Made by a program: the position numbers and the translations under genes. Source: Bacillus sp. es.036 (lineage in GTDB: Bacteria > Bacillota > Bacilli > Bacillales > Guptibacillaceae). From it: DNA of 64,000 nt. Below the pieces are notes generated by a model that searched no databases, was not told the origin of the DNA, and saw nothing but the letters and a program-made list of their open reading frames with translations. Location: NCBI RefSeq assembly GCF_002563635.1, contig NZ_PDIZ01000003.1, positions 372,001-436,000 of the forward strand, read 5' to 3'. Positions 14,514 to 28,721 of this stretch are shown here, one piece after another (position 1 is the stretch's first letter; each line of letters begins with the position of its first letter).

Positions 14514-14598
14514 GCCGGTGTGGCGGAATTGGCAGACGCGCACGACTCAAAATCGTGTTCCGAGAGGAGTGTCGGTTCGAACCCGACCACCGGTACCA
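14514..14598 (+). tRNA. tRNA-Leu(CAA), attachment site of the mobile element
   Basis: Class II tRNA, anticodon loop CTCAAAA between CACGA/TCGTG, encoded CCA. Its 3' part from base 14540 on is duplicated at 28661-28721, so the mobile element inserted here and left an intact tRNA gene on the integrase side. Confidence 0.96.
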
Positions 14599-14600
14599 TT
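14540..14600 (+). repeat. Attachment repeat, left (attL)
   Basis: 61 bases identical to 28661-28721, spanning the anticodon arm to the CCA end of tRNA-Leu plus two bases. Confidence 0.95.
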
Positions 14601-14768: not shown

Positions 14769-15758
14769 ATGGTAAGACGTAAAAACAATCTTAATGAACG
14801 TGAATTGTCCATAGTCCGAAAAAGTGAGAAGTCGTATGCAGAAACGTTCAAGGAAGCATTGCAACTCTTTCTTGATGATTGCGATTTACGTAATTTAAGA
14901 CCGTTCACTATCCGTTACTATCAAAATGAAATTCAAGCGTTTCTTAATCAGTTAGAAGAACAAGGAATAGATACGAATGAGTTAAAGCCCTATAACGTTA
15001 CGGAAGAACATATCCAAGAGAATGTTATTAGGTATATGCGTATTTACAAAGGCACTAAGATTGTCTCAATAAATACTCGTTTACGCGGTTTACGTTCGTT
15101 CTTCAACTTCCTTTACAAAAAGAAACACATACCTAAAAATCCTATGGAGAATATTACTTTATTAAAAGATAGGAAGCATGTAATCCCTACTTTCTCAAAG
15201 GAACAACTTAACACGTTATTTAATCAACCCGACTTAACTACATTTACGGGAGTTCGCGACTATACAATAATGATGGTTTTCCTTGAAACGGGTATACGTG
15301 TAAATGAACTTGTAGGGCTATCCATAGCAGATATTCAATGGGAAGATAGTTTGTTAAGGATTCGGAACGCAAAGACTTATAGGGAACGGTTAGTACCAAT
15401 ACAAAGCGAAATGAAGAAGCAACTGAAGAAGTATATCTCCATACGAGGACTTGTTGAATGTGATGACTTATTTGTAACCATTGATGGAACACCTTTATTA
15501 AGAAGGTCTGTACAACAGCGAATCGACGTATATGGGGTGAAAGCCAAAATAAAAGACGTTCGTTGTAGTCCTCATACGTTCCGCCATACATTTGCAAAGT
15601 TAAGTGTTCAACAAGGTGCTAACATATTTGAATTACAAACTATTTTAGGACATACAAGCATGGAAATAGTAAAGACCTATGTAAACCTATTCGGAAATGA
15701 TGTAAGAGAACGTCATAAGGATTTTTCACCGATAAAGGTGTTAAAGAAACGAAGATAA
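14769..15758 (+). CDS. int: Tyrosine recombinase (integrase) of the element
   Basis: 329 residues. N-terminal SAM-like core-binding domain (about 20-125) and C-terminal catalytic domain with the expected residues: Arg177 (ETGIRVNEL), Lys202, His269 and Arg272 (SPHTFRHTF), His295 (LGHTS) and nucleophile Tyr304 (TYVNLF). It resembles XerC/D-like integrases without an AP2-type arm-binding domain. GGAGGTG precedes ATG 14769. Lying 170 bases from the 61-bp repeat it very probably catalyses insertion into and excision from tRNA-Leu(CAA). Confidence 0.96.
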   Translation: MVRRKNNLNERELSIVRKSEKSYAETFKEALQLFLDDCDLRNLRPFTIRYYQNEIQAFLNQLEEQGIDTNELKPYNVTEEHIQENVIRYMRIYKGTKIVSINTRLRGLRSFFNFLYKKKHIPKNPMENITLLKDRKHVIPTFSKEQLNTLFNQPDLTTFTGVRDYTIMMVFLETGIRVNELVGLSIADIQWEDSLLRIRNAKTYRERLVPIQSEMKKQLKKYISIRGLVECDDLFVTIDGTPLLRRSVQQRIDVYGVKAKIKDVRCSPHTFRHTFAKLSVQQGANIFELQTILGHTSMEIVKTYVNLFGNDVRERHKDFSPIKVLKKRR

Positions 15759-15771
15759 GGCTGGTGTGTTA

Positions 15772-16011
15772 ATGGAGACGAGATTTAAAACTTTAGGGGT
15801 AAACGAAGAAGATATTTCTGTAAGCGTCTATTGTAACTATCTTAATTTAAGGGAAGCTAAAAGGGCTTTTCAAGAAAAGAAAGATGATTCAGTTGTAATT
15901 GAAATTATCAAAGATAAAGAAGAAAGGATAGGTGCAATATGTATTGGGATTGAAGAAGCTGAACGTATTGCATTAGCACTATTGAACATTCGTAGTTCTA
16001 TAAAATATTAG
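15772..16011 (+). CDS. Small hypothetical protein behind integrase
   Basis: 79 residues from ATG 15772 (a GTG at 15766 is also possible), 13 bases after the integrase stop. Mixed alpha/beta composition, no membrane segment, no motif I recognise. Position suggests co-transcription with int; an excisionase role is conceivable, but I see no helix-turn-helix to support it. Confidence 0.65.
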   Translation: METRFKTLGVNEEDISVSVYCNYLNLREAKRAFQEKKDDSVVIEIIKDKEERIGAICIGIEEAERIALALLNIRSSIKY

Positions 16012-16019
16012 ACATTAAT

Positions 16020-16617
16020 AAGAAAAAGCCACGCGTTGCACCGCGTGACCCAAACTTAGCTACAACTAAATACGGAAAACCGTTTTAGCTACTTACATAT
16101 GTTATCGAAAAAGATTAGTATATGCAAGGCTTATTAAGTATTGCCTTTTTTAGCAGCTGTAAAGTTTTCCCGTCGTGGATTGCCAACTAATACGACGTTA
16201 ATCTAACCTAGATAGGTTTGCCCTTGCCGATGCAATAACTTGGGATAGGACACATAAAAACGTTCCCTATTACGTTTAGTGTCCGAAGGGTGAAAGCTAC
16301 CTCTAAGTGCTGAACGAAGGAAGGGTAGACTGTCTAAGGACGGTGTAGGACAAGCCACAACTAACATAGAATCTTTTTCTAGTCCCAATATAAAAGGGTG
16401 TCGATTTAGCTAACTGAAAAGCCAAAGCGTAAGGTTAGGGGCTATGTGAACCTGCTAGGGCTACTTGCTGCAGTAGGCTTGTTAAAGAGAAATCTTTTCG
16501 TTTAATAGGGATATACTACGGACACCTCAGTAATTCCTGACGGATGTTTACTAAATATAAAGCGACTATTTCATATAGCATATTAATTTTCTTGCTATAA
16601 AGGTAGTCGTTTTTATG
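16020..16617 (+). ncRNA. Candidate large structured RNA (about 550-600 nt)
   Basis: A long stretch without a convincing gene but full of short perfect stems. Examples are CACGCG/CGCGTG (16030-16047), ACGG-AAAA-CCGT (16072-16083), CATAT/ATATG (16096-16124), CGTCGT/ACGACG (16171-16197), AACCT/AGGTT (16205-16218), a two-part stem GGACAC..AAACGT/ACGTTT..GTGTCC (16248-16284), and a long-range pair GGTGTC (16397) with GACACC (16521). It ends in a terminator-like hairpin with T-run. Length, richness of stems and a place in a phage-like element near tRNAs recall ornate RNAs such as ROOL or GOLLD, but I could not match a consensus, so the class is open. Confidence 0.5.
16561..16617 (+). terminator. 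Terminator closing the structured RNA
   Basis: AGCGACTA ... TAGTCGTTTTTA outer stem with an inner TATAGCA / TGCTATA stem. Orientation indicates rightward transcription of the preceding region. Confidence 0.65.
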
Positions 16618-16869
16618 CCTTCCGTTTTCCTCGACTAACCTTCAAGATGTTGCCAAAAAATCCAAAAGCAAGACTAAAGATGAATAAGTTGATAACTAAT
16701 TATAATTTTTATATTAGGCTACCTACATAAATAATCATTTGTATATATCCAAACACAATCGTAATGAATTTATGTATATATAAAAGAAAATATTGGATAT
16801 TGATGATATAATGATTAAGTAGCTTACCTATATCAGTATTATCAATATTAAAATTAAGGATGATGTAAT

Positions 16870-17256
16870 ATGGCGAAGTACGGTTATGGTGGAAAAGAAG
16901 AATTACTATATTTGAAAGCTTATAATCTAGCAAAAGAAGGCTATTCTACATTACTTTTTAGTTTTGAATCTGCACCAATTAAGCTTCTCCCCGTATTAGC
17001 GTCACATGTATTAGAAGTAGATATTGAAGAAGTGAAGAATCCATCAGAAGAAATCAAGAATAGAATGAAACAAGAACTAACAAAAGTACCGTTAACATAT
17101 GTGGATGAAACTAGCCTTTCTTTAGAAGAAATCGAAAAATTGATAATAAAAAATAAAAAGGAAAAAAATGTTACTCATGTGGTTTTTGACCGCGTTGATG
17201 AAAAGAATAAAATAGACCAGCTTGCAAATAAATTAGGGGTAAAAGCTTATTATTAA
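16870..17256 (+). CDS. Small DnaB/RecA-fold-like protein with degenerate P-loop
   Basis: 128 residues. The order of segments follows the catalytic half of replicative DnaB helicase: a glycine-rich KYGYGGKEE where Walker A would be, LLFSFESAP (about 28-36) where DnaB has a FSLEMS-like motif, LTYVDETSLSLEEI where DnaB has a VDDT..LT-EEI segment, and THVVFDRVDE at the Walker B place. The lysine is present but the GKT/S is not, and the N-terminal domain and C-terminal arginine finger are missing. It may be a regulator or decoy of host or phage helicase; this is inference from fold resemblance. AAGGATG precedes the ATG. Confidence 0.55.
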   Translation: MAKYGYGGKEELLYLKAYNLAKEGYSTLLFSFESAPIKLLPVLASHVLEVDIEEVKNPSEEIKNRMKQELTKVPLTYVDETSLSLEEIEKLIIKNKKEKNVTHVVFDRVDEKNKIDQLANKLGVKAYY

Positions 17257-17363
17257 TATTATATCACCAGGGAAAAAACACCTATAATTGGGTGTTCTTT
17301 ATCTTTGAGGAGATATATTTTATTGGTCATAGTTTTCATATAATTTGTTGGAGGCTTAAAATT

Positions 17364-18167
17364 ATGAGAAACTCTACCGCCATTAAATTGGAAGGGTGTA
17401 AGGAAAACTTAAGAAGAACTTACGAAGAATATAGTCGTCTTCAGGGTAATATGCAAAATTATAATAAACACTTGTCCGATGAAGAATTTCAAGAAGCTAG
17501 AATAGTAATATTTAGGCTTTGTGAAGAAATGGAGAAAGAAATTCCAAATGGTATAAAAGATAATAGGAGTGTAGAAGAATTTCTTCAAAATATACTTTTT
17601 GATAATTCTCCTTACGGTGAAGATATGTCCTATATCTCTAGCTTATATAATCCATTTATTGATTATATTGAGATGAAGAACATAGATGTGAAAATTCTAC
17701 ATATCGATTGTGAAGTACCACTTGAATTAAGTTATAATCATATTTTAGAGGACATTGCTAAATGCGAAAACAGAATTGAGTCAGGTGATTATTCAGGGGC
17801 GATAACTTCTGCAAAGTCTCTAATTGAAGGGGTATGTAAAGAAATTATATTAAATATTGAAGGCGAAGATATATCTGGTCACCCTAACTTACCCGAATTA
17901 TTTAATAAAGTACGCACACATCTGAATTTAGACCCTAGTAATGAAGAGTTACAAAAGTCTCTTAAACAAGTATTAAGTGGTTTAATTCAAGTTGTCCATG
18001 GATTAAATGAGGTTAGAAATAAAAGTGGTGATAGCCACCCTCGGAAAATCAAACCAAGTCTACACCATGCATTGCTAGTTGCTAATTCAGCAAAAACTGT
18101 AGTGAATTTCCTTTTTCATACTTATGAGTACCAAAGAAACTTAGGTAAGATAAAAATTTTAAATTAA
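17364..18167 (+). CDS. Abi_C (abortive infection C-terminal) domain protein
   Basis: 267 residues from ATG 17364 behind TTGGAGG; the longer upstream frame is not credible. The C-terminal half (about 130-255) has the Abi_C pattern: a helix with GAITSAKSLIEGVCKEI, then LNLDPSNEELQKSLKQVLSG, then the signature E-V-R-N-K-S-G-D-S-H at about 216-225, and a final KPSLHHALLVANSAKTVVNF helix. Abi_C proteins occur in phage-exclusion loci, and the RN..GD.H signature recalls HEPN-like RNase sites. The N-terminal 120 residues are not recognised. Confidence 0.75.
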   Translation: MRNSTAIKLEGCKENLRRTYEEYSRLQGNMQNYNKHLSDEEFQEARIVIFRLCEEMEKEIPNGIKDNRSVEEFLQNILFDNSPYGEDMSYISSLYNPFIDYIEMKNIDVKILHIDCEVPLELSYNHILEDIAKCENRIESGDYSGAITSAKSLIEGVCKEIILNIEGEDISGHPNLPELFNKVRTHLNLDPSNEELQKSLKQVLSGLIQVVHGLNEVRNKSGDSHPRKIKPSLHHALLVANSAKTVVNFLFHTYEYQRNLGKIKILN

Positions 18168-18488: not shown

Positions 18489-19055
18489 TTAGCCAGCCGT
18501 CTCTTTGTTCTTGGCATATATTGTAGCCCTTGGAACACCAGTCATTTTCACAATCTCATTAACGCTTAAACCGTTGTCCTTCCTTTCACGAAATAGCATC
18601 AAAGCCTTCTTAACGTCCTTATCTGGCTTCCCTTTGCGTCCCATGTGCGTACCCTTCGCCTTTGCCCTTTCTCTACCTTCCGCCGTTCTCTCATTAATAA
18701 TATCCCTCTCGAATTCAGCGATAGCCCCTAACATTGTAAACATTAACTTCCCCGCCGAATTGCTAAAGTCTATATTCTCCTTAATGAATACAAGCCCTAT
18801 ACCACGTTCTTGTAAGTCTCTTACTATCTTATGTAGGTCAAACGTTGAACGGGCTAGACGGTCTATCTTATACACTACAAGCGTATCTCCTTCACGAAGA
18901 TAGTCTAATGCCTTATTCAATTCCGCACGGTCAGCAGAACCACCACTAAACTTCTCCTTGAATATCTTATCTACGCCGTATGTATTCAGCTTATCTATTT
19001 GTATATCTAAACTTTGTTCCTTTGTACTAACTCTTGCATATCCAATAACCGCCAT
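18489..19055 (-). CDS. Serine recombinase, resolvase/invertase family
   Basis: 188 residues. Resolvase catalytic domain with nucleophile Ser10 in YARVSTKEQSLDIQ, YKIDRLARS near 65-73 and the long E helix; C-terminal helix-turn-helix (about 145-185, GLSVNEIVKMTGVPRATIY). Size is that of small Tn3/Gin-type resolvases, not of large phage integrases. AAAGGAAG precedes the ATG. In this element it could resolve multimers or invert a segment; six TAGAC/GTCTA motifs in the 150 bases upstream are candidate binding sites. Confidence 0.95.
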   Translation of the reverse strand: MAVIGYARVSTKEQSLDIQIDKLNTYGVDKIFKEKFSGGSADRAELNKALDYLREGDTLVVYKIDRLARSTFDLHKIVRDLQERGIGLVFIKENIDFSNSAGKLMFTMLGAIAEFERDIINERTAEGRERAKAKGTHMGRKGKPDKDVKKALMLFRERKDNGLSVNEIVKMTGVPRATIYAKNKETAG

Positions 19056-28660: not shown

Positions 28661-28721
28661 GCACGACTCAAAATCGTGTTCCGAGAGGAGTGTCGGTTCG
28701 AACCCGACCACCGGTACCATT
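28661..28721 (+). repeat. Attachment repeat, right (attR), 3' fragment of tRNA-Leu
   Basis: 61 bases identical to 14540-14600. It holds the anticodon arm to CCA end of tRNA-Leu(CAA) but lacks the 5' acceptor strand and D arm, so it cannot make a tRNA. Confidence 0.95.

What the first reader, a model, noticed from the sequence alone, without database searches (positions are those of the whole stretch)
16020..16617. About 550-nt highly folded gene-free region ending in a terminator, possible ornate phage RNA
Seen: at least seven perfect local stems, one long-range GGTGTC/GACACC pair, and a closing terminator, with no convincing gene on either strand. Established: ROOL and GOLLD RNAs are of this length or longer, occur in phage-like elements of Firmicutes and lie near tRNA genes. 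Inference: this may be a divergent member or a new class of large structured RNA.
Basis: partly seen in the sequence, partly recalled or inferred. Interest (0 to 1): 0.78.

Follow-up and report, generated by a model that had tools for sequence, protein, structure and literature searches.

The report
New large mobile-element structured RNA family
A roughly 550-base stretch with no gene turns out to encode a previously uncatalogued, knotted RNA that travels on prophages, plasmids and integrating DNA islands of Bacillus-like bacteria, usually right beside the integrase and often in front of anti-phage genes; its job is still unknown.

Summary
The region is a real, conserved, non-coding, structured RNA on the + strand (core about 16165-16630, preceded by a separate conserved leader, 16060-16152). 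No Rfam family matches it, at E up to 10 for the window region, or in six homologous loci at the curated cut-offs. An alignment of 32 divergent homologues supports 73 pairs in 14 helices, four of them pseudoknots: 88% of cells pair, against 32-42% when partners are slid; 62 of 73 pairs show changes on both sides. It lies in a 14.1-kb island between 61-bp repeats of tRNA-Leu(CAA), directly 3' of a tyrosine integrase. Homologues occur in about 6% of sampled genomes of the order, in prophages (15 IMG/VR contigs, usually near a contig end; past the lysis genes where read) and in small plasmids. RNAs over 80% alike sit beside integrases only 20-27% alike, so the RNA is reshuffled between integrases. 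Downstream cargo varies and is often defence-related. It is not ROOL, GOLLD or OLE by sequence. Most likely function, inferred and not shown: an accessory, trans-acting large RNA of the GOLLD/ROOL kind.

The parts
14514..14598 (+). tRNA-Leu(CAA), integration target
   Evidence: ARAGORN; same tRNA lies upstream of the RNA in seven other loci
14540..14600 (+). left attachment repeat (61 bp exact)
   Evidence: direct repeat with 28661-28721
14769..15758 (+). tyrosine recombinase (integrase)
   Evidence: Pfam Phage_integrase E 1.4e-31
15766..16011 (+). small ORF, 81 aa; similar ORFs before the RNA in L035, L046, L047; optional
   Evidence: no Pfam match
16026..16051 (-). intrinsic terminator of the - strand, between integrase and RNA
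   Evidence: hairpin recurs in island homologues (A5)
16060..16152 (+). conserved 5' leader module ending in GCCTTTTTT; occurs without the core in L045, L054 and L057
16165..16630 (+). core of the structured RNA, up to the conserved CCGTTTTCC
   Evidence: alignment A5, pair counts
16171..16197 (+). helix P1 (171-177 with 191-197)
   Evidence: 95% of cells paired, 5 pairs changed on both sides
16215..16245 (+). helix P2 (220-226 with 239-245) and 2-bp pseudoknot PKa (215-216 with 227-228)
   Evidence: PKa 100% paired with double changes; P2 73%
16248..16284 (+). helices P3 (248-253 with 279-284) and P3b (259-262 with 273-276)
   Evidence: 88% and 100% paired, every pair changed on both sides
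16265..16510 (+). pseudoknot PKb: CCCTATT 265-271 (loop of P3b) with AATAGGG 504-510
   Evidence: 98.6% paired, 5 of 7 pairs changed on both sides
16288..16311 (+). hairpin P4 (288-291 with 299-302) and pseudoknot PKc (295-297 with 309-311)
   Evidence: PKc 100% paired, AGC/GCT replaced by AAC/GTT in five homologues
16325..16483 (+). P5 (325-328 with 461-464, crossing P7), P6 (329-333 with 340-344), P7 (349-356 with 476-483), P8 (452-455 with 470-473)
   Evidence: P5 90%, P7 92%, P8 95% paired
   Evidence: A5 columns about 545-625
16484..16497 (+). hairpin P9
   Evidence: 78% paired, all 5 pairs changed on both sides
16563..16609 (+). 3' hairpin P10; followed by a T-run here but not in many homologues
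   Evidence: 77% paired; A5
16870..17256 (+). cargo ORF with weak DnaB_C similarity
   Evidence: below Pfam cut-off
17292..18167 (+). AbiJ-like abortive-infection gene (cargo)
   Evidence: Pfam Abi_C 2e-20; PADLOC AbiJ 2.7e-18
18489..19055 (-). serine resolvase
   Evidence: Pfam Resolvase 1.1e-47
28661..28721 (+). right attachment repeat (61 bp exact)

Best explanation
The region encodes a new family of large (about 450-620 nt) structured non-coding RNA that belongs to mobile elements, not to the host. It folds into a compact multi-helix core held by at least four pseudoknots and acts in trans as an RNA or ribonucleoprotein particle. It serves the element, most probably when the element is active or meets a competing phage, as one may suppose for GOLLD and ROOL. 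It rides at the edge of the element (just 3' of the integrase in islands, between lysis genes and the provirus end in Bacillus prophages) as an exchangeable accessory module at the head of the cargo zone. Shown: homology, non-coding nature, + strand, covarying pseudoknotted fold, mobile-element carriage, placement, reshuffling between integrases. Inferred: transcription, trans action, benefit to the element.
For: Covariation: 73 pairs, 88.3% of cells paired against 70.2% in shuffles and 32-42% when slid; 62 pairs with two-sided change; 0/500 shuffles reach any measure. Strand: G-U 142 against A-C 59 over the helices, e.g. P7 34 to 4; refolded, 272 to 38 on + and 79 to 69 on -. Spread: 23 of 397 genomes of the order, 15 IMG/VR contigs, plasmids. 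Placement: directly downstream of integrases of 8 lineages below 45% identity; past holin/endolysin genes in prophages, within 3.1 kb of a contig end in 14 of 15. Independence of the integrase: L086/L041 RNA 84% with integrases 20%; L034/L033 82% with 25%; L047/L051 80% with 27%. Occurrence on plasmids and in prophages not 3' of an integrase argues against a purely cis role. Cargo beside it is variable and often defence-related.
Against: No expression data. No conserved sigma-70 promoter and no conserved terminator. The constant position 3' of the integrase on the same strand in islands could mean a cis role. No match in 50,697 isolated-phage records with three queries, so it is not a common phage function. 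Oligomerisation, the hallmark of GOLLD/ROOL, was not testable. The shuffles ignore relatedness; the slid control does not.
Confidence: 0.5

Rival explanations
1. The RNA is itself an anti-phage or superinfection-exclusion determinant: a defence cargo made of RNA, acting alone or with a host protein, in the slot where other elements carry protein defence genes.
For: It sits at the head of the cargo zone; neighbours include AbiJ, an ApaLI-type R-M pair, methyltransferases, AriA/OLD, ApeA-like PDC-S58 and DitA. In L045 and L054 the core is missing after the same leader and a protein gene follows instead. In prophages it lies in the accessory zone near the provirus end.
Against: No one protein partner follows the RNA in all loci; defence neighbours differ and may be hitch-hikers; such zones also carry non-defence genes.
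Confidence: 0.22
2. It is a cis-acting regulator of the integrase or of excision: the structured 3' region of the integrase transcript, controlling its stability or translation, or shielding the att region.
For: Same strand and about 10-470 nt downstream of the integrase in islands of 8 integrase lineages; all 10 nearest relatives of the window integrase (itself included) carry it, none of the next 20 does; no own promoter recognised.
Against: Absent next to most integrases; in Bacillus prophages and plasmids it is not 3' of an integrase; RNA similarity does not follow integrase similarity.
Confidence: 0.15
3. It is a DNA signal rather than an RNA: a replication or transfer origin, or a packaging site shared by prophages and satellites.
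For: The same sequence is shared by prophages, islands and plasmids, as expected of a packaging or origin signal.
Against: Strand-asymmetric G-U tolerance and nested plus crossing helices over 450 nt point to a folded RNA; in the prophages read it lies past lysis genes, not beside terminase genes.
Confidence: 0.06
4. A divergent member of ROOL, GOLLD, OLE or another described family missed by the models.
For: Same size range and mobile context as GOLLD and ROOL (PMC12286853).
Against: No Rfam match beyond chance at E up to 10 in the window nor at gathering thresholds in six divergent homologous loci; more than 30 homologues give a distinct, self-consistent fold.
Confidence: 0.03

Closest known systems
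GOLLD and ROOL RNAs
   Different: No covariance-model match; here the tRNA proximity comes from the integration site; the RNA is coupled to tyrosine integrases and a defence-rich cargo zone; no match in isolated phages; oligomerisation unknown
OLE RNA
   Same: About 600 nt, structured, found in Bacillota with conserved nucleotides (PMC9723947)
   Different: No Rfam match; to my knowledge OLE is a chromosomal RNA, not integrase-coupled mobile cargo
Bacillus phage phi29 packaging RNA (from own knowledge)
   Same: Structured phage RNA of Bacillus
   Different: Far smaller, tied to the packaging motor; no Rfam match here; this RNA is not next to packaging genes

Membership tests
ROOL | Match to the Rfam covariance model | tested here: not met
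   cmscan of 15900-16750, E up to 10: only chance matches to other families
ROOL | Large pseudoknotted RNA in phages or prophages near tRNA islands | tested here: inconclusive
   Size, pseudoknots and prophage carriage met; tRNA proximity only in islands, due to att site
ROOL | Homo-oligomeric nanocage | not testable with these tools
   Needs cryo-EM or native gel
GOLLD | Match to the Rfam covariance model | tested here: not met
GOLLD | Universally conserved 3' region, less conserved 5' region, many members above 800 nt | tested here: not met
   Homologues are about 500-640 nt as cut here; core conserved throughout, with a conserved 5' leader
OLE RNA | Match to the Rfam covariance model | tested here: not met
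Large structured non-coding RNA (new family) | Compensatory changes across divergent homologues | tested here: met
   62 of 73 pairs, 422 cells, 0/500 shuffles; slid controls 27-33 pairs
Large structured non-coding RNA (new family) | No conserved reading frame | tested here: met
   Median longest ATG ORF 40 aa, in differing frames and strands
Large structured non-coding RNA (new family) | Transcribed as a stable RNA | not testable with these tools
   No expression data available
tRNA-integrated mobile island | Integrase and flanking direct repeats in a tRNA gene | tested here: met
   61-bp repeats 14.1 kb apart in W; 57-bp repeats 7.8 kb apart in L043

The most novel reading that the evidence does not exclude
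A new family of large RNA that works as a stand-alone anti-phage or inter-element conflict agent: an RNA-only (or host-protein-assisted) defence cargo swapped between integrases on prophages, plasmids and islands.
Probability: 0.18. Interest if true: 0.93.

Novelty: new variant of a known kind. Interest (0 to 1): 0.77.

Why it matters
Large ornate bacterial RNAs are rare and their functions are an open question. This family is absent from Rfam, recurs across many families of one order of Bacilli (one copy also in a Trichococcus assembly), has a well-supported secondary structure with four pseudoknots, and sits in small, tractable elements (down to 7.8 kb) and plasmids of culturable bacteria. 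That makes the question 'what do mobile elements use large RNAs for' directly testable by deletion, trans-complementation, phage challenge and cryo-EM. It also marks a family of integrase-coupled cargo zones rich in defence genes.

Tried and rejected
Rfam at curated and permissive thresholds: nothing. Coding alternative: rejected. RNA on the - strand: rejected by G-U/A-C asymmetry. ACGG 518-521 with CCGT 622-625 pairs in 98% of cells but hardly varies, so left open. A weak match in another class of the phylum (L139, E 2e-4) was not confirmed by the full profile and is set aside; of the 12 genome contigs pattern matches, L084, L087 and L093 have no profile support and L094 is a MAG contig identical to Bacillus, so these are not counted as hosts. 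Promoter search: no conserved site. Single constant protein partner: none found. Literature: no description of this RNA found in seven searches of the held library, which lacks most subscription papers.

Full report
What is in the window. The window is a piece of a Bacillales chromosome; one genome of the same genus (G007) holds the contig listed as Pseudalkalibacillus hwajinpoensis NZ_JAIVAE010000012 (same length and RNA position). An rRNA operon and a 16-tRNA array end in tRNA-Leu(CAA), 14514-14598. The 3' part of that tRNA, 14540-14600, is repeated exactly at 28661-28721, so the 14.1 kb between them is an integrated element. From the left it carries a tyrosine integrase (14769-15758), an 81-aa ORF, the region in question, an AbiJ-like gene, a resolvase and a row of small genes.

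The observation. The stretch holds no convincing gene. Its predicted folding energy is only modestly low: z -2.1 to -2.2 for the whole, -1.0 for the core, and a coding control window reaches -1.85. The GGTGTC/GACACC pair is not conserved and the terminator is doubtful.

Homologues. A DNA search of 397 genomes of the order found related non-coding DNA in 25. Profiles and a covariance model of a 101-position core raised this to 35 non-redundant sequences, in Pseudalkalibacillus, Halobacillus, Cytobacillus, Sutcliffiella, Bacillus and one Trichococcus assembly among the named hosts. Sampled prevalence with the model was 23 of 397 in the order, 6 of 398 in the class sample and 2 of 388 in the phylum sample (the window's own genome included in each; the second phylum hit not confirmed). 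There is no match in isolated phages for three queries, but there are 15 IMG/VR contigs, a 15-kb Sutcliffiella plasmid, and partial copies on plasmids of Planococcus (7.6 kb) and Pseudalkalibacillus (16 kb).

Structure. On alignment A5 (32 sequences) I drew helices suggested by RNAalifold, by a covariation scan of all column pairs and by reading the alignment. The counts: 73 pairs in 14 helices, 88.3% of 2256 cells paired, 62 pairs changed on both sides, 422 such cells; shuffles give 70.2%, 43 and 128; sliding the partners by 1-3 columns gives 32-42%, 27-33 and 72-102. Four helices cross others: PKa, PKb (the P3b loop CCCTATT with a distant AATAGGG, kept as CCTTGTT/AACAAGG and CTCTGTT/AACAGAG in relatives), PKc (AGC/GCT becoming AAC/GTT) and P5 (GTAG/CTAC, crossing P7). 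G-U pairs outnumber A-C mismatches 142 to 59 on the + strand, which places the RNA there. Because helices were partly chosen on the same alignment, the counts lean towards them; the slid control and the four crossing helices with independent two-sided changes make chance very unlikely.

Anatomy. The 5' leader (16060-16152) is a module of its own: in L045 and L054 it is present without the core and is followed at once by a gene (HTH_36 domain in L054; the L045 protein clusters with it), and L057 is cut off just after P1. An optional insert (about 16360-16450) is present in about a quarter of homologues. A - strand terminator separates the integrase from the RNA.

Context. In islands the RNA lies about 10-470 nt 3' of an integrase on the same strand. 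Of the 30 nearest relatives of the window integrase, the 10 at 65% identity or more (the window's own included) have it and the 20 at 62% or less do not. Yet the RNA also accompanies seven other integrase lineages, and RNA similarity does not follow integrase similarity: 84% RNA with 20% integrase (L086/L041), 82% with 25% (L034/L033), 80% with 27% (L047/L051). Insertion sites differ: tRNA-Leu(CAA) in eight loci, tRNA-Arg(CCT), a tRNA-Val (leader only), and sites without a tRNA found nearby. In Bacillus prophages it lies past holin and endolysin genes; 14 of 15 IMG/VR contigs have it within 3.1 kb of a contig end, though some of these ends may be assembly breaks. Downstream genes vary and often match defence families: AbiJ twice, an ApaLI-type endonuclease with its methyltransferase, other methyltransferases, AriA/OLD, ApeA-like PDC-S58 twice, DitA.

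Interpretation. The independence from any one integrase, the carriage by three kinds of element and the lack of a constant protein neighbour favour an RNA that acts in trans for the element. GOLLD and ROOL are the closest in kind: large, knotted, of unknown function, in prophages and phages (PMC12286853). They are not relatives by any test made here. A defence role and an integrase-linked cis role remain open, at about 0.22 and 0.15. Function is inference; existence of the RNA family is, in my view, about 95% certain.

Limits. No expression data; model E-values are rough; genome tallies are samples of one genome per species; the literature library lacks most subscription journals, so an earlier description outside Rfam cannot be excluded.

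Noticed in passing
L045:7894-8060, L054:8050-8241: The RNA's 5' leader occurs without the core, directly before related genes (L054 protein has an HTH_36 domain), as if the core had been lost or never inserted.
   Followed up: partly
window 15766-16011; L035, L046, L047: A small 81-85 aa ORF family of unknown function sits between integrase and RNA in elements with different integrases.
   Followed up: partly
L134 (about 2460-2700): Downstream of an integrase without the RNA, a motif TTTATTAAGTGATGCCATTTTTAGG resembling the leader's end precedes an HTH_36 gene.
   Followed up: no
G352:C1:961811 and 976255: Two related integrases (93% and 73% identical to the window's) 14 kb apart, suggesting tandem islands at one tRNA gene.
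   Followed up: no
L042:9363-9418: A Bacillus-plasmid RNA (RF01691) lies 1.2 kb downstream of the new RNA, on a contig with a MobL relaxase.
   Followed up: no
L094: A contig labelled Candidatus Paracaedibacteraceae MAG carries a copy identical to Bacillus velezensis, so probably contamination.
   Followed up: no
L039:7841-8155: A degraded 3' half of the RNA close behind tRNA-Leu(CAA) with the integrase gone: probably the scar of a lost island.
   Followed up: partly
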